From assembly GCA_944363705.1 (NCBI GenBank), contig CALVUY010000008.1:1-32852 (forward strand): 32,852 bases of DNA, read 5' to 3'. The notes beneath the pieces were generated by a model. The model saw nothing but the letters and a program-made list of their open reading frames with translations. It was not told the origin of the DNA and did no database searches. Below are positions 2,151-22,682 of the stretch, in pieces (position 1 is the stretch's first letter; every line of letters begins with the position of its first letter). This stretch comes from an uncultured Bacilli bacterium (GTDB lineage: Bacteria > Bacillota_I > Bacilli_A > RF39 > UBA660). The position numbers were made by a program, and so were the translations under genes.

Positions 2151-2202
2151 CACCTACTATCTAACTCTATTTAACAATATTATAAATTAAATTAATAAAT
2201 TA

Positions 2203-3197: not shown

Positions 3198-3207
3198 AAT
3201 TAGCCTC

Positions 3208-4935
3208 CTATAAACCAAATATTGTATTTCTAAGTTCTAATTTTTCCTGTAATTGCCAAGCAGTATAATCATTTTGTTCACAAACAGTAGTAGGAACATT
3301 ATCACCAGATGGAACAGTATCACAATAATTAGAACCATATATTATATTTAAATAATAGCAACCTCCCAAACTAGAACTACCAGGGTTATAACGATAATTA
3401 CCTAACCAAGAATAAGCTGATTGCATACCAGCTAACGTTCCTGGAGGTCCATGACCTGCCGGATCACATCCAGCCTCTTCTCTAGCTTGATTTCTTTCCT
3501 CAATTAAACTAGCATTGCTACCACCAGGTTGATATTCTTTTAAAGTATCAGCATACTCACGAATACCTTCTGCAAGCGAATGTAATTGAGGCCCAGCAGA
3601 ACAACTCTGCCCATTAGGAATACCAATTCCCCAAAAATTATAAAGGTCTCCACATTTTTTCCATGATTGTTCTGTACCTGCAGTTACAACAACAAGTTCT
3701 GGATTAACACCTGAATCCATCGATACATCATAAACTTCCTCGGCATGATCTGCAAAGTTAGTACAAAAAGCACTATTACCACTACTATCACAATATGCTT
3801 CCATTTTAGAAATAAACTCTTGTTTTGATAAAGAAGTAGAACCTAATGAAAAATCAACACAACTTGGACGAGGATTATCAATACTAACATAATCTAGTGG
3901 ATCAACTCTATTTTCTTGAGTATCTCCACCAACTCTAACTTCAAAATGTAAATGCATACCTGTAGAATTGCCAGAATGCCCCATTTTACCTATTACTTGA
4001 CCTTGTTTAACAGTATCTCCTGCTCTAACAGTAATACTATTTTGAGCCATATGTGCATAATAAGTATAATTACCATCAGAGTGCTCAATAACAACATAAT
4101 TACCAAAACCACCACCATCTTCATTTCCAAGATAACCATTATCAGCATACTGAGTCTGTGAATCATCAGTAGGATAAATCACAACCCCATCTTTGGCAGC
4201 AATTATATTAGTACCACCTATCTCATTATCATTAGAAATATCAATCGCACCATGGTCACCCTGATGTACATCATCATTACCTGCAAAAAAGGCAGTTATT
4301 TCTGAAGCAACAGGATCCCCACTAGCAAAAGTAATACCATTCTCTGTAGTTGTCTCAGCACTACCAATAGGCCACCAATAAGAATTACCATCACAACTAG
4401 TTGAAGAAGTACCCTCATCCTCTTGTCCTTGAGTAAAGTCTAAATAATCTTCTACATAATCAAAGACATCATTAGCCATAGACTGACAAGTAACATCAGA
4501 AAGATCAGAATCAATTCCTTTAAAATAATCAGCTAACTTATCTTTAGCTTTTTCCTCTGCTTCATCAGAAAAAGTAATCGCTTCACCTTCTTGATCAGCA
4601 TTATCAAGTAATATATTAGCAACTTCACGCATTCTACCTTTACTCATATCATCATAAGTAAAACCTTCTATATGTGAACACATAACAGAAAAAGCAGAAG
4701 TAATAATTAATTTTGAAACATCTTGTTCTTCTTCCCTATATTCATTATATACATCGTCTAATCTATCATAATATTTTTCAGCAGCATCACTATAAGAAAC
4801 ATAATCTATACTATCTATTGTTTTATCTATTCTAAAAAAGCAGGTAACCCCTACAAGAAAAACAGAAAATATTAAACCTATAGTAACAAGTTTTACCTGC
4901 CAAAAAGATCTATTTTTTTTATTATTCTTACTCAT
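3208..4935 (-). CDS. Bifunctional wall hydrolase: M23 metallopeptidase plus lysozyme/glucosaminidase-like domain
   Basis: 575 aa, anchored by a TM at about residues 12-34. Residues 40-180 are helical and acidic. An M23 (LytM) domain spans about 205-350, with zinc ligands visible as HGAID (His228, Asp232), His295 in YYAHM and MHLHFEV (His328, His330). The C-terminal region (about 370-575) looks like a glucosaminidase or lytic transglycosylase fold: NPELVVVTAGTEQSW (candidate catalytic Glu422) followed by FWGIG, plus several Cys residues. M23 enzymes cut peptide bridges and the second domain would cut glycan strands. Two-domain hydrolases of this kind are typical of Gram-positive conjugation systems, where they open the wall for the channel. 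The ribosome site is weak. The M23 call is firm; the second domain is moderate. Confidence 0.85.
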   Translation of the reverse strand: MSKNNKKNRSFWQVKLVTIGLIFSVFLVGVTCFFRIDKTIDSIDYVSYSDAAEKYYDRLDDVYNEYREEEQDVSKLIITSAFSVMCSHIEGFTYDDMSKGRMREVANILLDNADQEGEAITFSDEAEEKAKDKLADYFKGIDSDLSDVTCQSMANDVFDYVEDYLDFTQGQEDEGTSSTSCDGNSYWWPIGSAETTTENGITFASGDPVASEITAFFAGNDDVHQGDHGAIDISNDNEIGGTNIIAAKDGVVIYPTDDSQTQYADNGYLGNEDGGGFGNYVVIEHSDGNYTYYAHMAQNSITVRAGDTVKQGQVIGKMGHSGNSTGMHLHFEVRVGGDTQENRVDPLDYVSIDNPRPSCVDFSLGSTSLSKQEFISKMEAYCDSSGNSAFCTNFADHAEEVYDVSMDSGVNPELVVVTAGTEQSWKKCGDLYNFWGIGIPNGQSCSAGPQLHSLAEGIREYADTLKEYQPGGSNASLIEERNQAREEAGCDPAGHGPPGTLAGMQSAYSWLGNYRYNPGSSSLGGCYYLNIIYGSNYCDTVPSGDNVPTTVCEQNDYTAWQLQEKLELRNTIFGL

Positions 4936-4973: not shown

Positions 4974-6764
4974 CTAAAATCCTCCACCATTTCCAAATGA
5001 CTCTAACTCTTCTTGAGTTACAACTACATTTATTCTCATACGTCTATTACCACAAACAAATAATGCTTCACCTTGAGAATATCTCTTAATACTATCTTTT
5101 TCGTTTTCATTTAAATCTATAAGTAATGATAAATCTTCAACTGCTTGTTTTCTAAGTCCCATAACAAGATAATATGATGAGTTATCAAATATTGCTTTAC
5201 CTTGAGTAATAATAGCAGGACTAGAAAAATCACTAGGTTGTTGTGTAATTACAATAGTACCGGTATTATATTTACGAGCACGTCTTTGTACTTGAGCTAA
5301 GAAATCAGCTCCCTGTTCATTATTAGTACCAAGCAACACATGAGCTTCATCAACCATAAGAATAGTATTAACTGAAGTATCTAAACATAATCCCCAAGCA
5401 TATTTTAAAATGTTAAAGAATAGAGCATTTCTAATATTAGTATCAGAATTCATAAATTCTTTAATATTAAATACCATAAAATCACTATTAGCAGTTATAG
5501 TAGTCTTACCATCAAAATAGAACTTTAATTCTTTAACTAGAGGTCTAATCTTAAGCTCTAGTGTTTGAATAATATCTTTTTCTTTAGTTTGTTCTGTTAA
5601 AGACATAAGTCTACCTCTAATAGTAGCATAAACATCAGAGAAAGTTGGATAATCAGCTGAAGTAAACTTAGAAAAATCAGTATTAAAATCTATTCCAAAA
5701 CGTTTATAAGTATCTTGAACAATTTCACTAAACATATTAAGAACATCTTCACCAATAGATGGATCATAATACTTCATAAACGCTCTAAGAGATTGTAAAG
5801 TTCGAGTTAAAACAGTATACCCAAGTCCCTGACTAATCTCTTCATCATCAGCATCAATAATGACTTCTAACGGATTAATAAGACCATACTCTCCACCTTT
5901 ACCAATATCAACAACATCCCCACCAAAAGTTCTAGTCATCTCTTCTAATTCATTTTCTGGGTCAATTGCCACAATTTGGCAACCATTTCTAATATGAGAT
6001 CTAAGAAGTAGTTTAGCAGCAGTAGACTTACCACTACCAGAAGTACCAAGAATAATCATATTAGCATTATTTCTATTATTTTCTTTTCTAATTTGATAAA
6101 GAAATTGATTAAATAGAATTACACCTCCAGAAAAATCTACACCAAGTAATACAGATAAACCTGGATCTTTAATACTATCAAAGATAAAAGGATACATCGC
6201 TGCAATAGTAGGTGTTGGTATAGGTGTACCAATTCTCTCTTCTATATCTTGACTAGGAAAGATTGGTAAAATACTCTTTAAAACCTTCTCTTGTTCAAAA
6301 CGAAGAGATATCGCTCTTAATTCCATAGCATCCAAATAGTTTTTAACATTTACTTTCTTCAATTCAAGATCTTCCTTAGTATCAGCATTTATCATAATAT
6401 GCATTTGAAAATCAAAGATACGAGATTGACTAGAAGCAAGCATAGAAATAAAAGCTTCTAGACTCTCAGCATCCTGTCTAATTCTTTCCTTAGCAGTTTG
6501 ATCTTTCTCTTGACGATACTTCTCACGTAAATCTGCTACTTGTCTATTAATCATCTTAGACATTGTATTAAATGGTACAGGAATATGCTTAATAACTATT
6601 TTTATACCACTCATAGATGTTAATGTAGATAAATATCCAGGAGAAATAAATTTAGGATAAGATATAACAGAAAGAATAGTTGCATACTTATCACTAATAA
6701 CAAAATCACCAGGATTAAATTGCAATCCTTTAGGAGCTAATTGACTTTTTAAACTTATACTCAT
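4974..6764 (-). CDS. virB4: VirB4-like ATPase, C-terminal (catalytic) subunit
   Basis: 596 aa, cytoplasmic. Walker A is GTSGSGKST (about 240-248) and Walker B is ILMVDEAH (about 468-475), followed by QVQRRARKYNTGTIVITQQ, the arrangement of VirB4/TraE/TcpF ATPases. These hexamers power assembly and transport in type IV secretion. The first ~230 residues (LAPKGLQF, then GDFVISDKYATIL, and a helical hairpin) correspond to the middle part of normal VirB4 proteins. The extreme N-terminal domain is missing here and is encoded by the next gene upstream, which overlaps by four bases (ATGA). Together the two give about 785 aa, the usual VirB4 length. VirD4/FtsK-like coupling ATPases are related, but the N-terminal half and the adjacent PrgI-like gene favour VirB4. 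Confidence 0.9.
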   Translation of the reverse strand: MSISLKSQLAPKGLQFNPGDFVISDKYATILSVISYPKFISPGYLSTLTSMSGIKIVIKHIPVPFNTMSKMINRQVADLREKYRQEKDQTAKERIRQDAESLEAFISMLASSQSRIFDFQMHIMINADTKEDLELKKVNVKNYLDAMELRAISLRFEQEKVLKSILPIFPSQDIEERIGTPIPTPTIAAMYPFIFDSIKDPGLSVLLGVDFSGGVILFNQFLYQIRKENNRNNANMIILGTSGSGKSTAAKLLLRSHIRNGCQIVAIDPENELEEMTRTFGGDVVDIGKGGEYGLINPLEVIIDADDEEISQGLGYTVLTRTLQSLRAFMKYYDPSIGEDVLNMFSEIVQDTYKRFGIDFNTDFSKFTSADYPTFSDVYATIRGRLMSLTEQTKEKDIIQTLELKIRPLVKELKFYFDGKTTITANSDFMVFNIKEFMNSDTNIRNALFFNILKYAWGLCLDTSVNTILMVDEAHVLLGTNNEQGADFLAQVQRRARKYNTGTIVITQQPSDFSSPAIITQGKAIFDNSSYYLVMGLRKQAVEDLSLLIDLNENEKDSIKRYSQGEALFVCGNRRMRINVVVTQEELESFGNGGGF

Positions 6765-7330
6765 ACAGGCATCACCGTCCCAAACTCAGTAGAAATTCCT
6801 CCATTCAAGAAATTTTCCATAATTATTCTTAAATCATCATTACTAACTTGTGAAGCATTAAGTCCACATCCAGCAAGTCCATTAATAAGGAGTCTAACTC
6901 TTTTCTGTAAAAGATCTTCATTACTATCTTTAAATAGAATAAAATACTCAGTATCTACAATATTATTATTCATAAACATATTACCTTTATCTATATCCTG
7001 TAAAATAAGTTTACGAATAGCAGGAGAAACAGCATCATTATATAAAAGCTGTAATTGTGACATATAAACAGAAATATCAACAGGTCTATCTGCAACAACT
7101 AACCAAAACTCAAAATCTATCATATTATAGAAATTCTTAAGACCAATCAAAACATTATCTTGTTCTTGTTGATCAAGAATAAATATATTTCGTGGTGTAA
7201 TCTTAACACCTGTTACTTTCTGTTTATTATCACAAATAATAAATCCATTCTGAATACTAGATATTGGTAACCAATCTTCAGTATATTGACTAATTGCTCC
7301 TTTTTTGGACGTCTTTGACATCTTTAACAC
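6761..7330 (-). CDS. VirB4 N-terminal domain encoded as a separate gene
   Basis: 189 aa from a GTG; an internal ATG three codons later (7321) is an equally possible start. No membrane segment. It opens with DWLPISSIQNGFIICDNKQKVTGVKITPRNI and continues with alternating strands and helices, matching the N-terminal TraC/VirB4-like domain that precedes the ATPase in Gram-positive conjugation systems. It ends with TGA overlapping the ATG of the ATPase gene, so both should be made in fixed ratio. After the TGA the same frame reaches TAA one codon later, so stop recoding would not fuse them. It overlaps the end of the PrgI-like gene upstream. Whether this is a stable split or a recent frameshift cannot be told here. 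Confidence 0.7.
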   Translation of the reverse strand: MLKMSKTSKKGAISQYTEDWLPISSIQNGFIICDNKQKVTGVKITPRNIFILDQQEQDNVLIGLKNFYNMIDFEFWLVVADRPVDISVYMSQLQLLYNDAVSPAIRKLILQDIDKGNMFMNNNIVDTEYFILFKDSNEDLLQKRVRLLINGLAGCGLNASQVSNDDLRIIMENFLNGGISTEFGTVMPV

Positions 7331-7616
7331 ACCAACCTTTCCATATAAACCTTCTTCTATTAGTAAAGAAAGTATAACATTCTATAATTATAGTTAAAAT
7401 ATTATGATAATTAGGTATAGGAATAACAAGAAAAGCACATGTCAATCCAGGTATAAGAACAATAATAACTTGCCAAGTAGAAGCCATTGGAAAAGTCATT
7501 AACAAGACAAGAGAAATTAAAACACCAGTACCTAGTAATATCAAGTCAAAAGGTTTAAACCAACCAAGTATCAAGGTACCCCTCTTTGTATTTGCAGGTA
7601 TTAAATAATTATTCAC
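7290..7616 (-). CDS. PrgI/VirB3-like membrane protein
   Basis: 108 aa. The first residues (IPANTKRGTLILGWFKPFDLI) are followed by two TMs (about 24-41 and 47-67), then a short amphipathic cytoplasmic tail. This is the pattern of the PrgI family, the Gram-positive counterpart of VirB3, which lies immediately before virB4 in conjugative elements, exactly as here. It probably anchors the VirB4 ATPase at the membrane. The start is GTG with AGGAG eleven bases upstream. The end overlaps the VirB4 N-terminal gene. Confidence 0.8.
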   Translation of the reverse strand: MNNYLIPANTKRGTLILGWFKPFDLILLGTGVLISLVLLMTFPMASTWQVIIVLIPGLTCAFLVIPIPNYHNILTIIIECYTFFTNRRRFIWKGWCVKDVKDVQKRSN

Positions 7617-7636
7617 TATATATCACACTCCTATTA

Positions 7637-9694
7637 TCAACTGTTTTTATTAGCATTATGATTTGCACGATGTTTAATATTTTTTATATTAGTACTCATA
7701 TCAGTAGTAGCTTCTGTTGCAGCACCAATTGATGCACCAAGATTTTTATAGTCACCATCGTCATAAATCTCAGCAGCTTTACCACCAGCCTGACTAAAAG
7801 CATAATCTGTCATTCTCTTTTGAGACTTAATTTTTCCATTATTAATATACTTATCTTTATCTTCAACCCCAGAAGCAACATGTCCTTGAGTATATCTAAT
7901 AGCTTGTTGTTTTTTTATTTCTTCCATTACATTCTTATTAAACATACTTACATTATAATCAGTGCCATTATAATTAAACTTACCATTAACATCCTTACCA
8001 TTCATAGCAGCTACTAATTCTTCATAATTAAAATTACCAGTATAATCATTAAAACCATCACTTACTGTAACAGTTCCATAATCTCCAAATTTTAATGCTT
8101 CTTCTTCTATAAGTCCTTTCAAATTTTTTGCTTCACTAGCAGCATTCTTATTTAAATCTAAAATAGCTTGATCTTTTTCAGCTAAAGTTCTACCAGTAAA
8201 CATACCAAAAGCACCACTTGAAATACGACCAGGTAATGTAGAATGTGAAGCTCTCATAGCATTTCTTTTTTGCATAGCAGCCATTACAGAACTAGGAACT
8301 TTTTTATCAGTAGTGGCAAGAGTCTTAGCACCAGTAAAAAATCCTCCAATTCCACTAGTAATACCAGAAGTAATCGCACCTCCTACGCCCATCCAAGCAG
8401 GACGCTTTGCCATTTTATTTTCTTCCCAAGCAGCTCTAGCACCAGTTATAGCAGAACCAGCAAGTCCACCAGTTAAAGCAGCAGCACCTAACAAAGTTCC
8501 AATACCACTAAATAATTTGCCATCACCCTTAAGTCCTAACATATCTTGGAAAAACTTAGGAGCTTCTTTCATAAACATTAAGATACCAATAATAACAAAG
8601 ATTGTTGCAAAGAATGAAGTAAATAAATTTGTACTACTTTGTAAGAATGAGAAATCATTATTAGAATCAGTAATTATAATAATCAAATAAGCACCGAAAT
8701 AAATAATTATTAATCTAACAAACAAACTTAAATATGTTGAAGTTAAAGTTTTAACCCAATTACCAAAAACCCCATCCTTTTCTTGACCTGGACTTATATA
8801 AGAAATAATAGGAATAGGAGCAATAAGTCTTAAAACAGCTAATTTAATAGCCCTTACAGCAACATCAATAGTAAATCCTAAAATAATAATTATCATAATA
8901 ATAGAACAAAACAAACCACCTAAAATAGCATAATCAAAAACATAAACTTCATCACCATCTGAGTCACAAGTACTATTAATATGTGATACAAGTGCACCAG
9001 CAGAAACTCTAGGATTAAAATATGGTGCAGCTTCATTTGTTCCTGGGCAAGCAATATAATCGCCGTTTTCATAATCATCTCTTGTTGTTATCTCATCCTC
9101 ATTTATATCCTCTTTCAAGGCCGGCCTAATAAAAGCTTTAGCAACTGTTGCAGCCATTTGCTCCCCAACAGCAGCCATATTATTAAGTTCCGTACCATTA
9201 GTAGTTCCTTCCCCACTTGTTGAATCAACATTAGAACCTAATATTAATTTACCTAAAACATTATCTTGTATAACAGTATTTTGAATTTGATATAAAAAAC
9301 CAAATAAAATACCATTACTATTAATTTGCTCATTCAAAGGATTTCCATTAGTATCATCAATCTCAACAGGAACAATCAAGCTTAATAAAACAAGTACAAC
9401 CGCAATTCTAGAAATTAAAGAACCAGCTCCTTTTTGTTTATCTTTAAACATATCTGGATTAACAATCATTTGCAAAAGTGTTATTGAAAGCTTGAATATC
9501 ATAAAAACACCTAAAATAAGTTGAACTCTAGAATAAAAGGTATTAATTGCCGTTCCCTGAAAAATATTAGAATTAGTAACTGTAAAGAATATATCATAAA
9601 CAGCACCAAGCAAAAAATAACCAAAATTATCTAATACACTAAATAAAGTTCTAAGTGCATCGTTAAAAAAATTGGGATTTTGAAAAAAGTTCAC
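7637..9694 (-). CDS. VirB6/TrbL-like polytopic channel protein
   Basis: 685 aa. Hydrophobic segments lie around residues 24-39, 57-78, 93-110, 250-275, 280-300, 322-350 and 358-380, with an exported loop at about 111-245. The stretch AIKLAVLRLIAPIPIISYI followed by WVKTLTSTYLSLFVRLIIIY is typical of the large VirB6-like membrane proteins of Gram-positive type IV systems, which form the inner channel. After residue ~380 comes a ~300-residue tail: a Gly/Ala-rich amphipathic region, then a charged soluble region. The start is GTG with AAGGA upstream. It is placed between the pilin-domain genes and PrgI, the usual position for VirB6. The long C-terminal extension is longer than in minimal VirB6 proteins and has no recognised domain. 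Confidence 0.8.
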   Translation of the reverse strand: MNFFQNPNFFNDALRTLFSVLDNFGYFLLGAVYDIFFTVTNSNIFQGTAINTFYSRVQLILGVFMIFKLSITLLQMIVNPDMFKDKQKGAGSLISRIAVVLVLLSLIVPVEIDDTNGNPLNEQINSNGILFGFLYQIQNTVIQDNVLGKLILGSNVDSTSGEGTTNGTELNNMAAVGEQMAATVAKAFIRPALKEDINEDEITTRDDYENGDYIACPGTNEAAPYFNPRVSAGALVSHINSTCDSDGDEVYVFDYAILGGLFCSIIMIIIILGFTIDVAVRAIKLAVLRLIAPIPIISYISPGQEKDGVFGNWVKTLTSTYLSLFVRLIIIYFGAYLIIIITDSNNDFSFLQSSTNLFTSFFATIFVIIGILMFMKEAPKFFQDMLGLKGDGKLFSGIGTLLGAAALTGGLAGSAITGARAAWEENKMAKRPAWMGVGGAITSGITSGIGGFFTGAKTLATTDKKVPSSVMAAMQKRNAMRASHSTLPGRISSGAFGMFTGRTLAEKDQAILDLNKNAASEAKNLKGLIEEEALKFGDYGTVTVSDGFNDYTGNFNYEELVAAMNGKDVNGKFNYNGTDYNVSMFNKNVMEEIKKQQAIRYTQGHVASGVEDKDKYINNGKIKSQKRMTDYAFSQAGGKAAEIYDDGDYKNLGASIGAATEATTDMSTNIKNIKHRANHNANKNS

Positions 9695-9729: not shown

Positions 9730-10884
9730 TTATAATAAACATACAGTTTGATTAATAAATGACATTAATAATTGAACTAATGTAGGTACAAGGAACAAAG
9801 CCACTGCACAAACTAATCTAACTATTAGTTTAGATTGTGCTTCTTTCATAGCTTTCTCATCAGTACCAACAACTGCTTTTATAAAATCTATTGCACTCAA
9901 TAATACTACTAAAATTGGACCGATTACTTTTATATATCCTAAAATTAAATTAAGTAACCATCCAAATTGTCCTTCTTCTTGACCAAATATATCTTCACAA
10001 CCAATTGGCTCACCCAAACCCTCAAGTGTAGGTTGCTCTCCTAACTCTTCCCAATCTTCTTCCGCTTCTGCTTCAGAAGCAGCATTCTGATGATCTGCAG
10101 GCGCTATAGTTTGAATAGTTATTAAAGAACCATAAGTTTGATCAGCTGACAATCTAAATGGAGTATCAGAATCACATGAATTACTCCAATAAGTATCATA
10201 ATCTTCTTCTCTAACTTTAAAAGTATAATTTCCAACTGAATTAGGTTGATTATAAAGGGCAACACCTTCATCATTTCCAATTTTTATTCTATATTCTTTG
10301 ATTCCATTTGTTTCCGTCGTAGTAAAATACACAGGATGACTTGATTCAACATTTAAAGTATTGGTAAGAGTACAATATGTAACAGTTTTACTAGCACTAC
10401 CACTATTCCCACCCTGTATATTAGGAGCTAGCTCAATACTTATTTCATCATCCCCAACACCATATTGGCCACCAACAAAAAAGGATAATACTGGTGTAGT
10501 TGAACCATAACTATAATTAAACTGCATTCTAGGACAATTATTTCTTTCTTCATATGCTTTATAAAATTTTCCATTTTTATCAAACATCTTACTATAAGAT
10601 AAACGTATTAATGACTGATATTCCAATAAATATCTACCACTTTTAGGAACAACATTAATTTCACTACCATCAGCAGCAGTACCTAAAAATGCTCTTTCTC
10701 CAGTTGAACCATCATCATAAATAGTAACAGTTAATCTTAAATCTTTTACCCAATTATCCATCATTAACTGTTCTGTATTAAGATTATAAACACAAGTTCC
10801 TAATGATTCTTTAGCCATTACATCTTTTGGAATACATAAAAACGCGATAACAAACACAAAGAACAATAGATAAGACTTTTTCAT
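9730..10884 (-). CDS. Exported protein with C-terminal VirB2/TrbC-like pilin domain
   Basis: 384 aa from the ATG at 10884, which has GGGAG upstream and opens a clear signal peptide (MKKSYLLFFVFVIAFLCIP, cleavage after VMA). Residues ~25-270 are a polar, beta-rich exported domain of unknown family with a few Cys. The last ~110 residues have two hydrophobic segments (GWLLNLILGYIKVIGPILVVLL and VRLVCAVALFLVPTLVQLLM) joined by a short charged loop, TDEKAMKEAQSKL. The same loop and topology appear in the two short VirB2-like proteins at 12.3-13.0 kb, so this is a VirB2-type pilin domain with a large N-terminal passenger. The C-terminal region is nearly duplicated in the neighbouring broken gene. 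Extended -10 TGATATACT lies upstream, just after a strong terminator, so it likely has its own transcript. Confidence 0.7.
   Translation of the reverse strand: MKKSYLLFFVFVIAFLCIPKDVMAKESLGTCVYNLNTEQLMMDNWVKDLRLTVTIYDDGSTGERAFLGTAADGSEINVVPKSGRYLLEYQSLIRLSYSKMFDKNGKFYKAYEERNNCPRMQFNYSYGSTTPVLSFFVGGQYGVGDDEISIELAPNIQGGNSGSASKTVTYCTLTNTLNVESSHPVYFTTTETNGIKEYRIKIGNDEGVALYNQPNSVGNYTFKVREEDYDTYWSNSCDSDTPFRLSADQTYGSLITIQTIAPADHQNAASEAEAEEDWEELGEQPTLEGLGEPIGCEDIFGQEEGQFGWLLNLILGYIKVIGPILVVLLSAIDFIKAVVGTDEKAMKEAQSKLIVRLVCAVALFLVPTLVQLLMSFINQTVCLL
9741..10055. repeat. Direct repeat copy A (3' end of pilin-fusion gene)
   Basis: About 315 bases, highly similar without gaps to 10982-11296 (constant offset of 1241). 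It encodes the VirB2-like C-terminal domain. The flanking N-terminal coding regions are dissimilar, giving a mosaic pair. Confidence 0.85.
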
Positions 10885-10906
10885 ATTAAGCACTCCCATC
10901 ATCATG

Positions 10907-10924
10907 ATACAAGTATATCATTTA
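10907..10924 (-). promoter_or_regulatory. Extended -10 promoter with overlapping small palindrome
   Basis: Minus-strand TGATATACT is an extended -10 element upstream of the pilin-fusion gene at 10884. No good -35 is visible because the T-tract of the preceding terminator occupies that position. ATGATA and TATCAT form 6-bp arms around the -10 and could be an operator. Confidence 0.4.
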
Positions 10925-10953
10925 AAAAAAAAAATAGCAATTGTAATTGCTAT
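10924..10953 (-). terminator. Intrinsic terminator
   Basis: An 8-bp perfect stem (ATAGCAAT/ATTGCTAT) with a 4-base loop, followed on the minus strand by eleven T residues. It ends transcription of the broken pilin-fusion gene before the intact one at 10884. Confidence 0.85.
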
Positions 10954-10967
10954 CATATTTACATTAT

Positions 10968-12091
10968 TTATTTTAAAGTACAAACAGTCTGATTAATAAA
11001 TGACATTAATAATTGAACTAATGTAGGTACAAGGAACAAAGCCACTGCACAAACTAATCTCACTATTAATTTAGATTGTGCTTCTTTCATAGCATTCTCA
11101 TCAGTACCAAGTATAACTTTTATAAAATCAATAGCACTTAATAGTATTACCAAAATTGGTCCAATTACTTTTATATATCCTAAAATCAAATTAAGTAACC
11201 AACCAAGCTCCCCTTTTTCTTGACCAAATATATCATCACAGCTAATATGTTGACCCAAACCTCCAAGTGTAGCTTGCTCTCCTAACTCTTCCCATTCTTT
11301 AGTGGCATCATCATTATAATTAGACCTATCCTCATCACTGTCAGTACCAGTATCAATTATATTGACAATATAACTATTAGCATCCTTCCCATACACTTCC
11401 CGATAAGCATATAAATACGTTGGGCAAAAAAATTGATTATCACTATCATAAAAATCATTTTTTACATCTATTTCCAAACTACAACTTGTTGCAAGAAACA
11501 TATCACAGCTCCCACCAACATTGTTATTATTTTTTTTATTGATAGTCACATTACTAGTAATGTTATCATCAACATTTATACGCTGATATTTACAACTACT
11601 ATCGCTAGATTCTAATAACTTATATTGAATATTACTAACAGTTACATCAGAAGCCGATGTATCAGTAGAAACAACAACCCCTCTAAATCATCAGAACACC
11701 TATCCTTTAAATTAAAGAAAGAAGATTGACATGACTTCTTACTTTTATAAATTTTAAATCTCAAAGTAGTATATTGATCATAAACTGAAATATTTGGACA
11801 AGTTCCATCATCATTCAACTTTAAACCTTCCCCATTAGCAAATACTGCAGGTTTTTTTGTAAAAGGGGAAATTACCCTAGTTAATTTATTATCATCATCA
11901 TCTGTTTCTAAAATAAAATCAGCTTCTGTTGTAATTGGATTTCCAATCGAATCTTCAGTCTGTCCTTCATGAAGAGGATCTATCCAATGATATTTACATC
12001 TAGTCTTTGCCTCTACTTCATTAGGACAAATCAAAAAAATTATAAATAAAACTAAACAAAAGAAATTTAAAAAAACTCTTTTAAATAAAAT
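10968..12091 (-). pseudogene. Frameshifted paralogue of the exported VirB2-like fusion protein
   Basis: Two open frames form one gene. The upstream part (to 11642) encodes a signal peptide (frame starts LFKRVFLNFFCLVLFIIFLI, cleavage near EVEA) and a polar exported domain. The downstream part (10968 to about 11690) encodes more of that domain and a C-terminal VirB2-like two-TM region about 85% identical to that of the gene at 9730-10884. Reading jumps frame within a short window holding GGGG (11678-11681); one extra G there would restore a continuous protein of about 374 aa, close to the 384 aa of the paralogue. No ATG, GTG or TTG begins the signal peptide; the only well-placed codon is ATT at 12091, five bases after GGGAGG. 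It may be a pseudogene, a phase-variable gene, a -1 frameshift gene or an assembly error. Confidence 0.7.
10982..11296. repeat. Direct repeat copy B (3' end of frameshifted paralogue)
   Basis: Partner of 9741-10055. Similarity stops sharply upstream, near the sequence encoding EWEELGEQ, where the two proteins diverge. Confidence 0.85.
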
Positions 12092-12199
12092 GCCCCCCTC
12101 CCAGGTAACTATTTGTAAACAAAGTATTTCTCAAAACACACCAGTCACTTCTTACAAGCTTAACAACTTTATATTAACATATTTGTCCAATTATTAACA

Positions 12200-12229
12200 A
12201 TAATATAATTAACACTTTACATTTGTTAA
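12200..12229 (-). promoter_or_regulatory. Possible promoter of the frameshifted pilin-fusion gene
   Basis: Minus-strand TTAACA-N18-TATTAT lies downstream of a terminator and about 110 bases before the ATT start. The interval 12092-12236 otherwise holds only AT-rich sequence with several TTAAC-type repeats; no gene is seen. Confidence 0.35.
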
Positions 12230-12236
12230 CACTGAA

Positions 12237-12266
12237 AAATAATAGTAATGATAGTTACTATTATTT
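12237..12266 (-). terminator. Intrinsic terminator after the second VirB2-like pilin gene
   Basis: A perfect 12-bp stem (AAATAATAGTAA/TTACTATTATTT) with a 6-base loop and trailing T residues on the minus strand. It overlaps the last two bases of the stop codon of the pilin gene. Confidence 0.85.
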
Positions 12267-12618
12267 ACAGTTCCATAGGATTATTCCAACAATTACTCCA
12301 CTTAATCAAATCTTCATTTTCAGTAATATTACCCACCATAGTAAATACTAAATTAATAAGTGTAACAATAAAGAATATTAGTATAGCATAAACACATCTT
12401 CTTAATATTCTTTTAAAAAGTTTTTTATTTTCTTTATCATCACTACCAATAACTGCTTTACCTAAATCAAAAGTACAAAGTACTAATAATACAATTGGTA
12501 CTGCTATCTGTATTACAGGAAATAATCCTTCTTTAATAACTCTTACTAAAGAATCAAAACCATAACAATTACTTCCAACATTTACTACTACTTCATCTAA
12601 TATTTGAAAAAAATACAT
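12265..12618 (-). CDS. VirB2/TrbC-like pilin, second copy
   Basis: 117 aa with two hydrophobic segments (about 29-51 and 76-97) separated by a short charged loop containing LGKAVIGSDDKENKKLFKRI. This two-TM hairpin matches VirB2/TrbC pilins, which polymerise into the conjugation pilus or line the channel in Gram-positive systems. It is a paralogue of the next gene upstream (shared FFQILD start, GFD motif, second TM and SW/KWS-CWN end). There is no cleavable signal peptide. Start is supported by AAAGGA. A weak hairpin separates it from the upstream copy and a strong terminator follows. Confidence 0.7.
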   Translation of the reverse strand: MYFFQILDEVVVNVGSNCYGFDSLVRVIKEGLFPVIQIAVPIVLLVLCTFDLGKAVIGSDDKENKKLFKRILRRCVYAILIFFIVTLINLVFTMVGNITENEDLIKWSNCWNNPMEL

Positions 12619-12639
12619 ATAAAGTCCTTTCTACAATAG

Positions 12640-12661
12640 AAAAAACAGCAATTAAATTGCC
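12640..12661 (-). terminator. Weak terminator or attenuator between the two VirB2-like pilin genes
   Basis: Minus-strand stem GCAAT/ATTGC with a 3-base loop, then TG and six T residues. The short stem suggests partial termination, which would lower expression of the second pilin relative to the first. Confidence 0.5.
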
Positions 12662-12680
12662 ATTTATATCTAACAAAACT

Positions 12681-13040
12681 CTACTCAATACTATTCCAAC
12701 ACTCGCTCCAACTAGTTAAAGCCTGACTACCAGTAATACCACCTACAACAGAAAATAATAGATTAATAAGTGTTACAATAAAGAATACTAATATTGCATA
12801 AATACATCTTTTTATTAATTTAGACTGTGCTTCCTTAACAGCTTTATCATCACTAGATATAACCGCTTTACCTAAATCTAAAGTACCTAAAACTATTAAA
12901 ATAATAGGTATACCTATTTGTAAAATAGGAAACAATCCATTCTTAATAAGTCTAATTACAAAATCAAACCCACGACAAGCTGAATCAGGATTAGCTTCAA
13001 TTACATCTAAAATTTGAAAAAAACTCATAAAATTATTCAT
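12681..13040 (-). CDS. VirB2/TrbC-like pilin, first copy
   Basis: 119 aa from the ATG at 13040, seven bases after GGAG; an ATG two codons upstream lies too close to that site. Two hydrophobic segments (about 27-48 and 71-95) flank the loop KAVISSDDKAVKEAQSKLIKR. The same EAQSKLI motif occurs in both pilin-fusion proteins, tying all four into one family. This topology is that of VirB2/TrbC pilins, which assemble in the membrane. It is the first gene after a near-consensus promoter, so it is probably the most abundant subunit of the T4SS-like part. Confidence 0.75.
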   Translation of the reverse strand: MNNFMSFFQILDVIEANPDSACRGFDFVIRLIKNGLFPILQIGIPIILIVLGTLDLGKAVISSDDKAVKEAQSKLIKRCIYAILVFFIVTLINLLFSVVGGITGSQALTSWSECWNSIE

Positions 13041-13063
13041 AAACATTCTCCTTCACTACAATA

Positions 13064-13095: not shown

Positions 13096-14076
13096 TTATC
13101 TTTTAAATAACCCAAATATTTTTCCTCCACTTTCTTTTTCACTTGTTTTATTAATAAGTCCTATCTTAGATAAAAAATCACTAAGTACAGGATTTTTAAC
13201 TCTATCATTAAGTGGCGGTATATTATAAAAGACTTTAGTTCTTCCTTCATATTCAAAGTCCATAATATCACTATTAGAAAGTAAACTCATATTAAGAACT
13301 ATCTTACGTCCTTTTAATTCCTCAAATACTCTCCTATTTCTTTTCATTAATTTATTTAACCTAAGACTAGAAGGCTCTATTAAATATAAAACATCACTAC
13401 AAGCACCCTCATTATTAGAATCATTTAAATCTATTAAAATTATTGATGCTTCTTTATGTTTAACAACCTCAGTCATTAAATGTTCATCATCAACAGAAAT
13501 CATATTATGACTATTAAAATAAAGAAAATCATGCCTATTAACTTCTATCGCTACAACACTCATACCATAAGTCTGTTCCAATTCTTTCTTTAGCATATAA
13601 ATAAGTGTAGTACTTCCTGCATGATCAGTAACATTCTTTATTCCTATAATTCTCGAACCCGAGATTACTTTCTCATTAATAGTACTAGACAAATCATTGA
13701 GTTGCTGATAATGAGCAACATCTTTATAAGTATTAGGATGATCTAAAAAATATTTAACGCCATCAACAGTAGTAGTAAAATTATAAATTCCCATAGAAAT
13801 AATCTTAGACAAATAACTACTAGATGTTGAAGTCTCATTATTAGGAAGTAAAAGAATAATTTTATCAGCATCAAGACCAATAGATATCTTCTGAATATTA
13901 GTAATATCATCATAATCTTTAATAGCAGTAATATCTAAAATCATTCTTGCAAAAAAGAAGTTCTTGAACATCTCTACAATTTCATCAGCAGTATGAACAC
14001 CATCTACACTTTTAATAACATCAATATCTAATGTAGAAAGCATCGCTTTCGCTTCATTTGCAATAATAACGTTCAT
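13096..14076 (-). CDS. TadZ/CpaE-like pilus localisation protein with degenerate P-loop
   Basis: 326 aa, cytoplasmic. Residues 1-125 look like an atypical receiver domain (alternating strands and helices, IILLLPNNE). Residues ~140-300 resemble a ParA/MinD-like domain: SRIIGIKNVTDHAGSTTLIYML sits where the deviant Walker A (KGGxGKT) normally is, followed by VVAIEVNRHDFLYF. The lysines of the P-loop are missing, so ATP use is doubtful. The C-terminus ends in a short basic amphipathic stretch (KIFGLFKR) that could touch the membrane. TadZ/CpaE proteins place the Tad machine in the cell, and position within the Tad gene set supports the call. Start has AAGGA nine bases upstream. Confidence 0.65.
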   Translation of the reverse strand: MNVIIANEAKAMLSTLDIDVIKSVDGVHTADEIVEMFKNFFFARMILDITAIKDYDDITNIQKISIGLDADKIILLLPNNETSTSSSYLSKIISMGIYNFTTTVDGVKYFLDHPNTYKDVAHYQQLNDLSSTINEKVISGSRIIGIKNVTDHAGSTTLIYMLKKELEQTYGMSVVAIEVNRHDFLYFNSHNMISVDDEHLMTEVVKHKEASIILIDLNDSNNEGACSDVLYLIEPSSLRLNKLMKRNRRVFEELKGRKIVLNMSLLSNSDIMDFEYEGRTKVFYNIPPLNDRVKNPVLSDFLSKIGLINKTSEKESGGKIFGLFKR

Positions 14077-14091
14077 TATCTCACTTCCTTT

Positions 14092-14562
14092 TTAATAAAT
14101 CGTTCTGGTTTCACCATAAACACTTAGAAAATCACCTAATCCTATTATATTATTAATTACAGGAATATCTATATTAACGAAAGTTACAACAGAATAATAC
14201 TTACCATTTCTCTCGCCATCAGCTTCATCAACAGAAACATTATGTTCTATATAACACCAACCATTCTGACAAACTGGCTCAGTAGAAGATTCACCTGTCT
14301 CACTATCGTTACCATATCTGCTTTTAAAATTATTTACGAGCCTTGTAGGAACCTCATAAGTCATTTGATCAATAATACTATTTATTTTAGTAATCGCTTC
14401 ATCATTATAAGGTCCCTCATACTGCTCAATAATATCAACAATCTGATTCTTAATTCGAAATGCTCTAGCATAATTAACAGAATAAGCCATATAACCATTA
14501 ATCAAAATTACAAAAGCTAATATAACTTGTAAAACAAAAACTTGTCCTATCGCATCTCTCAT
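14092..14562 (-). CDS. TadE-like pseudopilin
   Basis: 156 aa. A single N-terminal hydrophobic helix (about 7-27, QVFVLQVILAFVILINGYMA) is followed by an exported domain with a Cys pair (CQNGWC) and a C-terminal IPVINNIIGLGDFLSVYGE segment typical of TadE/TadF-type minor pseudopilins. Such proteins prime or tip Flp pili. It directly follows the Flp-like pilin gene. The start has AGGA upstream. Confidence 0.6.
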   Translation of the reverse strand: MRDAIGQVFVLQVILAFVILINGYMAYSVNYARAFRIKNQIVDIIEQYEGPYNDEAITKINSIIDQMTYEVPTRLVNNFKSRYGNDSETGESSTEPVCQNGWCYIEHNVSVDEADGERNGKYYSVVTFVNIDIPVINNIIGLGDFLSVYGETRTIY

Positions 14563-14583: not shown

Positions 14584-14745
14584 TTATTCAAATTCTACAT
14601 CTGCTTTCTCATCAACATTATCATCCCAAGTATTTTGAATGCTCTCTTGGATAGTTGGCCAAAAGAAAGCAAAGAAAGCTGCAATTATACCAATTAATAC
14701 AATTGTAACTACAGTCATGTTTAATTCTCCAGTCGCTTCTTTCAT
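14584..14745 (-). CDS. Flp-like major pilin (53 aa)
   Basis: A small gene in the gap between tadC and the TadE-like gene. It encodes MKEATGELNMTVVTIVLIG, then IIAAFFAFFWPTIQESIQNT and an acidic tail ending VEFE. It has a short polar leader, one ~20-residue hydrophobic helix and a small C-terminus, as in Flp/Tad pilins that polymerise through the helix. The leader has a Gly at position 6 followed by Glu, which could be a prepilin peptidase site, though the canonical spacing is not clear. Start at 14745 follows AAAGGAG by twelve bases; an internal ATG at codon 10 has GGAG eight bases upstream and is an alternative. It has its own extended -10 promoter, as expected for a highly expressed pilin. 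Confidence 0.7.
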   Translation of the reverse strand: MKEATGELNMTVVTIVLIGIIAAFFAFFWPTIQESIQNTWDDNVDEKADVEFE

Positions 14746-14834: not shown

Positions 14835-15623
14835 TTATAAAGCACTACCAAGACTAGTAATTAAAGATGCAAGTATAACAAGCATTACACTAATACCTGT
14901 AACAACAAGCATAATCATAGTCTGATTACCCATATGATCAAGTCTTTCTTTATACTTAGTATCTCTTGACTTAGCCTGTAAATTAGAAACAGTACGAGAA
15001 AACATTAAAAGCCTTTCCTGTTTTTTATCTTGTCCCCCAAGACCTAAACGATATAAAAGTCTCATCATTCTCATAGAATCTCTAACAGGATAAGTATTAG
15101 CAAAATCCATATATGGTGTAATACTAGAATCACCTGAATTAATCTTCTCAATCATTTCTCTTAAACCTGGTTTAAAAATATCTGGTGCATCATTTATACT
15201 CTTACCTATCGCTACAGGAACAGTATAATGTTGTATTAATATTTCTAAACTCTTTAAATAGTATGGCAACATTATATCAATTTGATGCAAATGAGCTTTA
15301 TAATATTTTTTTAATTGCATATAAGGCATCTTAAATATACCTACGGCCACTAAACATGAAAGTATTACATTGATTAAACTAACATCATCAATGAATAAAA
15401 ACATAAATATAAAGAATGCTGCAATAGCATAAGTTATTCTTTTTTGAAATAACACATTAGGGGTTGCATTATCACCATACTTTGCATAAACAAGAAAATC
15501 ATAATCATCTTCTCTTAATATTTCAAAATATTTCTTATTATCATTAATAAATTTATCTTTATCAATAGTTCTATTATAGACTAAAATAAATAGAATAATA
15601 ACTGCAATAAATACTATTTCCAT
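14835..15623 (-). CDS. tadC: TadC-like pilus assembly membrane protein
   Basis: 262 aa. Hydrophobic segments lie at about 2-14, 65-100 and 235-258, with a cytoplasmic helical domain between. GspF/TadC-type features are the helical bundle and the motif LRMMRLLYRLGLGGQDKKQERLLMFSR before the last TM. TadB and TadC together form the inner-membrane platform on which the CpaF ATPase acts. It starts two bases after the stop of the TadB-like gene, so the two are co-translated. It is somewhat shorter than many TadC proteins. Confidence 0.75.
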   Translation of the reverse strand: MEIVFIAVIILFILVYNRTIDKDKFINDNKKYFEILREDDYDFLVYAKYGDNATPNVLFQKRITYAIAAFFIFMFLFIDDVSLINVILSCLVAVGIFKMPYMQLKKYYKAHLHQIDIMLPYYLKSLEILIQHYTVPVAIGKSINDAPDIFKPGLREMIEKINSGDSSITPYMDFANTYPVRDSMRMMRLLYRLGLGGQDKKQERLLMFSRTVSNLQAKSRDTKYKERLDHMGNQTMIMLVVTGISVMLVILASLITSLGSAL

Positions 15624-15625
15624 AA

Positions 15626-16519
15626 TTATTCAACCCCCACATTCTCATTATAATATTTTTCTCCTTTTAAAAGGAAATAACTATTAAAAATAATAATAAA
15701 GTGTAGTACAACTTGAACCCAAAGGTTTTTAATTAGTTCAATATAACTCTCACTACCAAGCATATATTGAATTAACATAACTAAAAGAAATAACATAATA
15801 CCGTATTGTAAGAATTTCTTATGAAAAGATGCTCTATCCATTCTATCCCTATATACACTTTCAACAAGAGTATCTATATCAAGTTGCATATTTTCCAAAC
15901 TTTCTCCAGTATCCTTTGCACCTTCTTTAGTTATTTGTAGAAATAACTGATGCATATTTTTCACTATATAGTAAGGATACTTATCACTAAAAAATGATAA
16001 AGCTCCATCAATAGAACCCTCTTCATAAGCCATATCAATCATTCTATTAACATCACTAAGTACAGGATCTTCTAAAATCCCAGAATCTCTAACACCTTCT
16101 AATGATTTAACAAAACTCTGAGTAGTAGCAAATTCCATAATAGTATTAGTCGTATAAACCTGTATCTGTTCAAAAATAAACTCACTATACACTCTTTTAC
16201 ATCTTAAAAATGATAAATAAGGAATAAATGCTATAGCAATAACAACATAAATAATTGATACAATTATATTATAAAAATACATATAAGTAACAATACCTGC
16301 AAAGCCACCCATTATTAAAATTTGAATTAAATATTGCCTCGCTGTATATTCCTGACCTAACTGTTTTGTTTTTTCTCTTACAACTTTATAAGAGTATGGT
16401 GCAAATTTATCATATATCGCTTGAACTTGATTAGTAATAAACTTAGAAACGTTTTGTCCTTTATAATTTCTATATAGTAAAATAACAATAGCAATTACTA
16501 ATAGTAAAAAAAGTACCAT
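15626..16519 (-). CDS. tadB: TadB-like pilus assembly membrane protein (GspF family)
   Basis: 297 aa. TMs at about 1-16, 66-105 (two segments) and 240-290. A cytoplasmic helical domain contains EFATTQSFVKSLEGVRDSGILEDPVL and later LFLQITKEGAKDTGESLENM, the pattern of T2SSF/TadB domains. It should sit in the membrane beneath the Flp pilus and couple to the CpaF motor, encoded directly upstream. Start supported by AGGAGG. No sign of truncation. Confidence 0.8.
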   Translation of the reverse strand: MVLFLLLVIAIVILLYRNYKGQNVSKFITNQVQAIYDKFAPYSYKVVREKTKQLGQEYTARQYLIQILIMGGFAGIVTYMYFYNIIVSIIYVVIAIAFIPYLSFLRCKRVYSEFIFEQIQVYTTNTIMEFATTQSFVKSLEGVRDSGILEDPVLSDVNRMIDMAYEEGSIDGALSFFSDKYPYYIVKNMHQLFLQITKEGAKDTGESLENMQLDIDTLVESVYRDRMDRASFHKKFLQYGIMLFLLVMLIQYMLGSESYIELIKNLWVQVVLHFIIIFNSYFLLKGEKYYNENVGVE

Positions 16520-16535: not shown

Positions 16536-17756
16536 CTAAACTATCTCAGTAGGAAATGTAGTATCACTACCTGAATTTTGGCCACCTTGATTACTTTGAT
16601 TTAGATTATTAAAACCATTAAAACTTTGAGATCCCACTACATTAACTTGAGGATTTACATTAACAACCTCATTAACTGCACTATCTATATTACTCATTGA
16701 ATCCCCTTTAGTAAATAAATTATCAATAAAGATATTTTGATTTTCCAAATATTCTCTTAAATACTCACTAGGCATATTTTGAACAGGAGACTTTCCAAAG
16801 GTCTTTTGATATAGAATATGAGACTGAGGTTTATTATTTTCATCAACATAAAACTCAACAACTTCATCAACTTCTCTATGAAATTTACCATATTCTTTAC
16901 TATAATAGGCCTTGATATGAACACCTAATTGAATATAACGATAAATTGTATTTAAAAACTGATCTACATCTATATCACTTTCAAGAAGTGAATACATACG
17001 ATAAGGTATAGCACTAGCTTTATCTGCATGTATTGTAGATAAGATATTATGTCCTGATGATATAGAGTTACGAACTGCTGTAACTGCCTCTGCACTACGT
17101 ACTTCTGATAATAGTATCCATTTAGGATTCTGACGCATACAGGTAACCAAAACATCAGAATAACTAGCAACATTATTAGTCTTCATAGCCACTATATCAC
17201 GATGAGGAAATATCTTATCCAAATGAAGTTCCAAAGTATCTTCTATTGTAATAATTTTTTCGTTTTCTTTAGTATGACTAGCTAAATATTTAACAAACTC
17301 TGTTTTACCTGAACCAGTCTCTCCACTTACCATAATATTACAATGTCCTTCAACACACTTCATCAAAATATCATGAATATTAGCAGTAAAATAATCTTCA
17401 CTAATCAACTTCTCTTTATTAAGTCTAATCTTAGCAGGAGTCTTACGAATAACCACTGCAATACCATTAGTAGCAATAGACTCATGCACAAAGTTAAGAC
17501 GAAGTTCTGTAGATTCAGCATCCAAAAATGGTTTCGCATTATTAAATGTCGTCCCCATTACGTTAGAACATTGAAAGGCTAACTTCTCAACAAAGTTATC
17601 ATTTAACCCTTCAATCTCTACTCTTTTAGATCCTTCTGTTAAAGAACGAACCCAAATTTGACCATGATTACAATATGAAATATCTGTTATATCATCATTA
17701 TCTATTAAAGGTTTAAATAATCCAAAATCTAACTTATCAAATATGGAATCGTTCAT
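16536..17756 (-). CDS. cpaF: CpaF/TadA-family secretion ATPase
   Basis: 406 aa from the ATG at 17756 (AAGGG eight bases upstream; a GTG three codons earlier is less likely). It shows the full set of type II/IV secretion ATPase motifs: Walker A GETGSGKT (about 145-152), Asp box IITIEDTLEL, Walker B WILLSEVRS and His box GHNILSTIHAD. CpaF hexamers drive Flp pilus polymerisation. The SEVR and HAD motifs and the neighbours CpaB, TadB and TadC favour CpaF/TadA over the VirB11 relative of conjugation systems. The C-terminal ~45 residues are Asn/Gln-rich and probably disordered. Confidence 0.92.
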   Translation of the reverse strand: MNDSIFDKLDFGLFKPLIDNDDITDISYCNHGQIWVRSLTEGSKRVEIEGLNDNFVEKLAFQCSNVMGTTFNNAKPFLDAESTELRLNFVHESIATNGIAVVIRKTPAKIRLNKEKLISEDYFTANIHDILMKCVEGHCNIMVSGETGSGKTEFVKYLASHTKENEKIITIEDTLELHLDKIFPHRDIVAMKTNNVASYSDVLVTCMRQNPKWILLSEVRSAEAVTAVRNSISSGHNILSTIHADKASAIPYRMYSLLESDIDVDQFLNTIYRYIQLGVHIKAYYSKEYGKFHREVDEVVEFYVDENNKPQSHILYQKTFGKSPVQNMPSEYLREYLENQNIFIDNLFTKGDSMSNIDSAVNEVVNVNPQVNVVGSQSFNGFNNLNQSNQGGQNSGSDTTFPTEIV

Positions 17757-17775
17757 AATCTTCACCCTTTCTATT

Positions 17776-18603
17776 TTATTGTTGTGTATATGATAAATCT
17801 TCTTCAGTCATCGCTGTAACATTATTAATAAAGTTTCTCAAATCTTCACTAGATAATTCTACATCTCCTGGTTCATCTTCTAAAGACTCTGCAGTAGGAA
17901 CAGGTATAATCTCAGATTCATATGCCCTTAAATACTCTGCTTTACGAAGTAAAATATGATATTCTTCTGGTACAGCAAAGATAACTTGTGAAGGTGCTGT
18001 TTTCTCTTCTACATTAGCAAAAGCATTATTACCATTACTATCAAATACAGCAAGTACTTTAACATTAGATAACAATTTACCAACCATAATTCTATCATCA
18101 TCTACTGTTCCATCAGCACCTTGAGCATTTTGAACTTTCAAATAAATATCAATATAGTTACCTGGATAAATAGAATTACTATAAGAACTAGCCATATCAA
18201 CATCTAGGTTATATAAAACATAACCTTTAGGATAATCCAAAATTATACTATCAGGTAACTGATCACGCGTAACAACACATCTTTTATAAAATAAACTTCC
18301 TTCAGGAATAAGAGTATCTCCACTAGTATACATATCAATAACATCTGCACTATTTGTAATAATATCACTATTATTATTTACCATATCTTGAGGTATTTCC
18401 ATTGTACCTATCATATCCTCAGTAATTTGTGTTCTAGAATCAATATCTTGTGTAGCATATGGAACAGTAATAGGTGTAATCGCTTGATTAATTCTCATAT
18501 TATAACCAACATAAAGTACTACAATAACAAGAATAACACCAACTACTGTAACTGTATTCTTATTAGTAAAGAATTTCTTAATTCCAACCACTAAATTATT
18601 CAT
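17776..18603 (-). CDS. cpaB: CpaB-like Flp pilus assembly protein (SAF domain)
   Basis: 275 aa. TM at about 17-36, then a SAF-like domain (about 44-105) with VPYATQDIDSRTQITEDMI and a second RcpC/CpaB-like region beginning YNLDVDMASSYSNSIYPGNYIDI. CpaB/RcpC proteins act outside the membrane in Flp pilus assembly, possibly binding peptidoglycan or the pilus. Position just before cpaF is the classic order. Start supported by AGGAGG. The acidic C-terminal tail has no known role. Confidence 0.85.
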   Translation of the reverse strand: MNNLVVGIKKFFTNKNTVTVVGVILVIVVLYVGYNMRINQAITPITVPYATQDIDSRTQITEDMIGTMEIPQDMVNNNSDIITNSADVIDMYTSGDTLIPEGSLFYKRCVVTRDQLPDSIILDYPKGYVLYNLDVDMASSYSNSIYPGNYIDIYLKVQNAQGADGTVDDDRIMVGKLLSNVKVLAVFDSNGNNAFANVEEKTAPSQVIFAVPEEYHILLRKAEYLRAYESEIIPVPTAESLEDEPGDVELSSEDLRNFINNVTAMTEEDLSYTQQ

Positions 18604-22667: not shown

Positions 22668-22682
22668 AATTTACTCCTTTAC

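What the first reader, a model, noticed from the sequence alone, without database searches (positions are those of the whole stretch)
9730..13040. Family of four VirB2-like pilin-domain proteins, two fused to large exported domains
Two short two-TM proteins and two signal-peptide proteins share the loop motif EAQSKLI (or a variant) and the same hairpin topology. VirB2/TrbC pilins are normally ~100 aa; carrying a ~250-residue exported passenger would let a pilus or channel display folded domains. I do not know a described system of this design.
Basis: partly seen in the sequence, partly recalled or inferred. Interest (0 to 1): 0.62.

Follow-up and report, generated by a model that had tools for sequence, protein, structure and literature searches.

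The report
T4SS pilins carrying swappable exported domains
A conserved type IV secretion locus in an order of small gut bacteria encodes VirB2-like pilin domains welded to interchangeable exported domains, which in sister genomes are often cell-wall-cutting enzymes, suggesting a contact weapon or adhesive surface built on the pilin itself.

Summary
Four genes carry one homologous two-helix domain; three have EAQSKLI exactly, the fourth (12265-12618) has a variant. One passenger gene (10968-~12085) is frame-broken here but intact in relatives. Profile comparison links the domain to T4SS_pilin (PF18895, VirB2-like) and to nothing else in the locus. It lies directly before VirB6-, VirB3- and VirB4-like genes and after a Tad-like block. 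The same gene order recurs across the order. Nearly all genomes sampled have a VirD4 coupling protein and most lack a relaxase, the window's genome included: a co-opted T4SS, not a conjugation system. Within the genus, VirB4 is 93-96% identical while passengers are mostly unrelated. In sister genera the pilin domain is fused at either end to CHAP, NlpC/P60, M23, VanY, S11, amidase, endolysin-like or GDSL domains; many of these genes are followed by a small exported protein. I propose pilins as carriers for displayed or delivered domains, with antibacterial antagonism the likeliest use (inferred). The window's own passengers have no recognised fold. I found no description of this design. New variant of a known kind.

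The parts
12681..13046 (-). Short VirB2-like pilin (pilA), 121 aa, no passenger; conserved in the core loci compared
   Evidence: AF2 model: helices 28-64 and 67-105, pLDDT 75.5
12265..12618 (-). Second short VirB2-like pilin (pilB), 117 aa; loop motif variant
   Evidence: 58% identical to pilA
10968..12085 (-). Passenger pilin 1: signal peptide + passenger + pilin domain, split over two frames (11642-12034 with upstream start, and 10968-11549)
   Evidence: intact relatives L038:8477-9559 and L059:124-1236
9730..10905 (-). Passenger pilin 2: signal peptide, ~270-residue exported beta-rich passenger, acidic linker, C-terminal pilin hairpin
   Evidence: AF2 model mean pLDDT 56.8
7637..9694 (-). 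VirB6/TrbL-like membrane protein
   Evidence: PF19597 1.2e-9
7290..7616 (-). VirB3/PrgI-like small membrane protein (inferred from position, size and topology)
6761..7330 (-). VirB4 N-terminal part as separate ORF (inferred from position)
   Evidence: split conserved in all genera compared
4974..6764 (-). VirB4 ATPase, C-terminal part
   Evidence: NF045975 8e-104; 72-95% identical across genera
3208..4935 (-). M23 wall hydrolase, VirB1-like
   Evidence: PF01551 1.2e-23
2203..3218 (-). Two small exported proteins (2203-2673, 2673-3218), candidate VirB8-like by position only
   Evidence: no Pfam support
789..2153 (-). Membrane-anchored NlpC/P60 protein (weak match)
   Evidence: PF00877 0.006; conserved
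82..786 (-). Lipoprotein of a family that also follows pilin-hydrolase fusions in other genomes
13096..14076 (-). TadZ/CpaE-like protein (inferred by position)
14092..14562 (-). TadE-like minor pilin candidate (inferred)
14584..14745 (-). Flp-like 53-aa pilin candidate MKEATGELNMTVVTIVLIG...
   Evidence: similar small ORF in the same gap in relatives
14835..15623 (-). TadC-like (inferred by position and topology)
15626..16519 (-). TadB-like (inferred by position and topology)
16536..17765 (-). TadA/VirB11-family ATPase
   Evidence: PF00437 1.6e-28; TIGR02788 3e-32, TIGR03819 1.4e-31
17776..18603 (-). CpaB/RcpC
   Evidence: PF16976 6e-8

Best explanation
The four genes encode VirB2-like (PF18895-type) pilins of a chromosomal, co-opted type IV secretion system that is conserved across an order of small gut Bacilli and encoded in one block with Tad-like genes. 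Each pilin domain is a membrane hairpin with a cytoplasmic loop and both ends outside (inferred from the signal peptides, two flanking cysteines and passengers at either end). Short pilins act as plain subunits (inferred); passenger pilins carry an exported domain that is held on the extracellular face of the channel or pilus, where it can be presented to, or delivered into, a touching cell (inferred). Passengers are exchanged as modules. In related genomes many are wall or ester hydrolases, often followed by an exported partner protein, so I judge contact-dependent antagonism of other bacteria the most likely purpose, with passengers such as those of the window serving as binding domains or uncharacterised effectors. 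Shown: homology, gene order, conservation, module exchange, enzyme fusions, VirD4 presence, relaxase absence. Inferred: pilus assembly, delivery, killing, immunity.
For: Pilin homology with negative controls. Core order TadA...TadZ-pilA-(pilB)-passenger pilin(s)-VirB6-VirB3-VirB4-M23 kept across genera. Pilin domain in 272 of 288 genomes, 95 of 102 genera of the order. VirD4 in 55 of 60 genomes including this one; the 4 of those 60 without a pilin match all lack VirD4 (p 1e-5). PF03432 relaxase in 16 of 60, none in this genome. Within the genus VirB4 93-96%, TadA 87-92%, pilin domain 70-88%, passengers mostly 16-25%; five passenger families unrelated by hhalign. Of about 24 C-terminal-passenger pilins scanned, 13 carry hydrolase domains over Pfam's cut-off: CHAP, NlpC/P60, M23, VanY, S11, ELLD, GDSL, S9-type, C39-like; N-terminal passengers include Amidase_3+NlpC and M15. 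11 of 28 are followed within 100 bp by an exported 110-330 aa protein against 104 of 791 other genes (p 7e-4).
Against: No experiment shows a pilus, secretion or killing. The window's own passengers match no enzyme or known fold and have no partner gene of this kind downstream. The candidate-immunity signal is moderate, and the same lipoprotein family accompanies CHAP, VanY and endolysin-like fusions and also sits in the core locus, so it may be a general hydrolase partner, not cognate immunity. Gram-positive T4SSs use anchored wall hydrolases (VirB1) on their own wall (PMC12857230). The window pilins are below the Pfam cut-off.
Confidence: 0.55

Rival explanations
1. Pilin-anchored wall enzymes and surface domains serve the cell itself: they open or remodel its own wall around the T4SS/Tad channel or form a wall-spanning stalk, an extended VirB1 role, with no target cell.
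For: Membrane-anchored CHAP/LytM VirB1 proteins are standard in Gram-positive T4SSs (PMC12857230). Lipoproteins of the 82-786 family follow both core hydrolases and fusions. Some fusions sit beside an mltG-like wall gene.
Against: The core locus already has M23 and NlpC proteins; the repertoire includes carboxypeptidases and lipases/esterases; up to 17 pilin-domain matches in one genome; passengers are replaced between close species.
Confidence: 0.25
2. Passenger pilins are adhesins or receptor-binding decorations only, diversified by phage or host-surface pressure, and the T4SS moves something else (DNA or unfused effectors).
For: Core-locus N-terminal passengers are exported, mostly lack enzyme domains and vary strongly; the window's is predicted beta-rich. 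X-T4SS VirB2 proteins have variable C-terminal extensions suggested to bind targets (PMC6536674).
Against: Many passengers elsewhere are enzymes.
Confidence: 0.15
3. The hairpin is only a convenient membrane anchor, unrelated to pilus or T4SS function.
For: Dispersed fusions lie far from the T4SS genes.
Against: Specific PF18895 homology, position before VirB6-VirB3-VirB4 and joint absence with VirD4.
Confidence: 0.05

Closest known systems
Patescibacteria T4SS with VirB2-like pilin arrays (PMC12102498)
   Same: Chromosomal, relaxase-poor T4SS in monoderms; VirB2-like pilins (searched with PF18895 among others) in variable arrays near virB4; VirB3-, VirB6- and VirD4-like proteins
   Different: No passenger or enzyme fusions and no Tad block reported in the passages read; different phylum
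X-T4SS, bacteria-killing T4SS of Xanthomonadales (PMC6536674)
   Same: T4SS with VirD4; dispersed wall and lipid hydrolase effectors with exported lipoprotein immunity proteins
   Different: Effectors there carry a C-terminal XVIPCD signal, not a pilin domain; diderm core complex VirB7/9/10; the window's genome shows no enzyme fusion of its own
Evolved Hcp/VgrG effectors of T6SS (own knowledge)
   Same: Structural subunit of a secretion machine fused to an effector domain
   Different: Unrelated machine; here the subunit is a membrane pilin
Conjugative plasmid of Bacilli with T4SS plus Tad-like genes (Exiguobacterium pEYLC1.2, NZ_CP082335)
   Same: Pilin-TrbL-VirB4 together with CpaB, TadZ-like, ATPase and TadB/C-like genes
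   Different: Has MobP3 relaxase and VirD4 beside the pilin, small plain pilin, plasmid-borne
Chromosomal T4SS of another Bacilli family (L139/L092)
   Same: Short pilin, VirB6-size gene, VirB4 and a 511-aa signal-peptide passenger pilin over the PF18895 cut-off
   Different: VirB4 is one long ORF; no Tad genes detected nearby

Membership tests
T4SS_pilin / VirB2-like (PF18895) | Profile match | tested here: met
   Top family for 35 of 43 homologous domains, best 7e-8; relatives over cut-off; hhalign 92-96% against reference members, controls at most 12%. The window's own four are below the curated cut-off
T4SS_pilin / VirB2-like (PF18895) | Two-helix membrane hairpin | tested here: met
   AF2 model of pilA, helices 28-64 and 67-105
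T4SS_pilin / VirB2-like (PF18895) | Match to a solved VirB2 pilin fold | tested here: inconclusive
   Only generic hairpins: Foldseek no E below 0.001, VIA Z up to 7.2
T4SS_pilin / VirB2-like (PF18895) | Encoded with VirB4/VirB6 | tested here: met
T4SS_pilin / VirB2-like (PF18895) | Polymerises into a pilus | not testable with these tools
   needs microscopy
TrbC/VirB2 (PF04956) | Profile match | tested here: not met
   Absent from the Pfam results listed for all members
Conjugative T4SS | Relaxase encoded | tested here: not met
   No PF03432 match in this genome; 16 of 60 in the order; other relaxase families not searched; genome about 90% complete
Protein-translocating T4SS | VirD4 coupling protein | tested here: met
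   G000 contig 43, 6.5e-59
Tad pilus | CpaB and TadA-family ATPase | tested here: met
   (the ATPase scores VirB11 and TadA models alike)
Tad pilus | TadB/TadC, TadZ, TadE, Flp | tested here: inconclusive
   Position, size and topology only; no Pfam hits
Tad pilus | Prepilin peptidase | tested here: met
   PF01478 in G000 contig 18, 4.5e-14
X-T4SS effector/immunity | Effector with adjacent exported immunity protein | tested here: inconclusive
   11 of 28 fusions in relatives, none in the window; function untested
X-T4SS effector/immunity | XVIPCD C-terminal domain | not tested
   No profile used; the fusions carry a pilin domain

The most novel reading that the evidence does not exclude
A T4SS that kills competitors by using its own pilin subunits as effector carriers: polymorphic pilins with exchangeable wall- and lipid-hydrolysing domains, paired with exported immunity proteins, order-wide in gut Bacilli.
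Probability: 0.42. Interest if true: 0.9.

Novelty: new variant of a known kind. Interest (0 to 1): 0.72.

Why it matters
VirB2 pilins are described as small and as essentially absent from Gram-positive-type T4SSs, Patescibacteria being the named exception (PMC12857230). An order-wide T4SS whose pilin domain is a chassis for swappable exported domains would give a second monoderm case, a new effector-recognition principle (the pilin itself as tag) and a candidate explanation of how very small-genome gut bacteria interact with neighbours. Reading passengers off pilin domains would also be a way to find new effectors and immunity proteins.

Tried and rejected
Chance motif sharing: rejected by profile comparison with controls. 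Conjugative element: rejected as a present function, because no PF03432 relaxase was found in this genome, the locus lies beside tsf/rpsB/typA-type genes and VirB4 is highly conserved across genera. TrbC/VirB2 in the strict Pfam sense: not matched. PDB sequence profile searches gave only chance-level membrane proteins. Foldseek and VIA searches of pilA and the Foldseek search of the passenger pilin gave no VirB2 and no passenger fold; the low-confidence passenger model makes that uninformative. tblastn of the passenger pilin in plasmids: none. An iterated pilin profile pulled in nine VirB6 proteins; removed before counting. Passenger families were not found in intact non-pilin proteins of the fetched loci.
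Full report
What is there. The window is a 29% G+C contig of a 1.46 Mb genome; its closest named relatives are Candidatus Onthousia, class Bacilli. All genes of interest are on the - strand in one run: sortase and exported proteins, CpaB, a TadA/VirB11-family ATPase, TadB/TadC-like, an unlisted 53-aa Flp-like gene (14584-14745), TadE-like, TadZ-like, two short pilins, two passenger pilins, VirB6, VirB3-like, VirB4 in two overlapping ORFs, an M23 wall hydrolase, two small exported proteins, an NlpC-like protein and a lipoprotein. TadB/C/E/Z, VirB3, the VirB4 N-terminal part and VirB8 assignments rest on position, size and topology; the ATPase, CpaB, VirB6, VirB4 C-terminal part and M23 rest on profile matches.

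The four genes. Three contain EAQSKLI exactly and 12265-12618 a variant. The gene at 10968-~12085 is read in two frames; each half matches the same passenger family from intact relatives. Conserved features are a cysteine before helix 1 and one after helix 2, a proline in helix 1 and an acidic/basic loop.

Family. hmmscan of every aligned member puts PF18895 (T4SS_pilin) first for both groups. hhalign against PF18895 reference proteins taken from other genomes of the class gives 95.7% and 91.6%, and at most 12% against ten other alignments of proteins from the same loci. The two groups are homologous to each other (99.6%). The window's own four fall below Pfam's cut-off, but relatives reach 39 bits.

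Distribution. The pilin domain occurs in 272 of 288 genomes of the order; outside the order only two weak hits appeared in a class sample. Gene order is kept across genera and VirB4C is 72-95% identical between genera. VirD4 is present in 55 of 60 genomes; the four of these without any pilin match also lack VirD4. In at least one other genus a VirD4-like gene lies just downstream of the core locus's M23-type gene. PF03432 relaxases are in 16 of 60 genomes and not in this one. A prepilin peptidase is encoded elsewhere in this genome. A conjugative Exiguobacterium plasmid carries pilin, TrbL, VirB4 and Tad-like genes with relaxase and VirD4, so the core probably descends from such an element and was domesticated (inference).

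Passengers. Among 185 pilin-domain ORFs in the fetched loci (after removing VirB6 false positives) 83 have N-terminal, 28 C-terminal and 3 two-sided passengers, and 71 none. The same genomes are sometimes represented by two overlapping loci, so these are counts of ORFs, not of independent genes. Passengers at either end fit a hairpin with both ends outside. Within the genus VirB4 is 93-96% identical but most passengers are at the level of unrelated sequences, and five passenger families show no profile relation. One passenger type is shared with a distant genus. Many C-terminal passengers are hydrolases: CHAP, VanY, S11, NlpC/P60, M23, endolysin-like, GDSL, S9-type, C39-like; YkuD and further C39 matches are marginal. 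N-terminal ones include Amidase_3+NlpC (L052) and M15 (L177). A 99-aa pilin plus a 511-aa passenger pilin beside VirB4 also occurs in another family of the class.

Partners. After 11 of 28 C-terminal-passenger genes an exported 110-330 aa protein follows within 100 bp, against 13% of other genes (p 7e-4) and none of 56 N-terminal-passenger genes. Partners of CHAP, VanY and endolysin-like fusions belong to the same lipoprotein family as window 82-786. This resembles effector/immunity pairs, but a shared partner family for different enzymes also fits a general hydrolase inhibitor. Export was judged by a simple hydropathy rule, not by a trained predictor.

Mechanism. Most likely the short pilin forms the basic subunit and passenger pilins insert with their domain outside, so that the T4SS presents or delivers it on contact. 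Evidence for the machine and the fusions is direct; assembly, delivery, killing and immunity are inferred. The window's own passenger 2 has a beta-rich, low-confidence model without a PDB match, so its activity is open: binding domain or unrecognised effector.

Literature. The full-text library gave no paper on passenger-bearing VirB2 pilins or on this order's T4SS. A 2025 review says VirB2 is not found among Gram-positive T4SSs except Patescibacteria (PMC12857230), and the Patescibacteria paper reports variable arrays of pilins without mention of such fusions in the passages read (PMC12102498). Bacteria-killing T4SSs use dispersed effectors with lipoprotein immunity proteins but a different recognition domain (PMC6536674). 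Most subscription papers and preprints were not searchable.

Noticed in passing
4974-7330: VirB4 is encoded as two overlapping ORFs in every genus of the order compared, unlike the single-chain VirB4 models.
   Followed up: partly
14584-14745: A 53-aa Flp-like pilin candidate (MKEATGELNMTVVTIVLIG...) sits between TadC- and TadE-like genes here and in relatives.
   Followed up: partly
19088-24530: Sortase, a 938-aa exported protein and an Ig-like surface protein lie next to the Tad block; the 938-aa protein is conserved with the locus.
   Followed up: no
L140:9731-10102 (G000 contig 25): A short pilin without passenger sits beside mltG- and methyltransferase-like genes, a neighbourhood where other genera carry pilin fusions with C-terminal domains (L157, L162, L168).
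   Followed up: partly
L141:7255-12936: Four tandem pilin genes with different C-terminal domains, one of them C39-like, in a genome with 17 pilin-domain matches.
   Followed up: partly
L139:7698-13176: Chromosomal T4SS of another Bacilli family with a short pilin and a 511-aa passenger pilin next to VirB4.
   Followed up: partly
L038:15642-20000: A lipoprotein of the 82-786 family follows both the M23 and the NlpC gene, suggesting a hydrolase partner role.
   Followed up: partly
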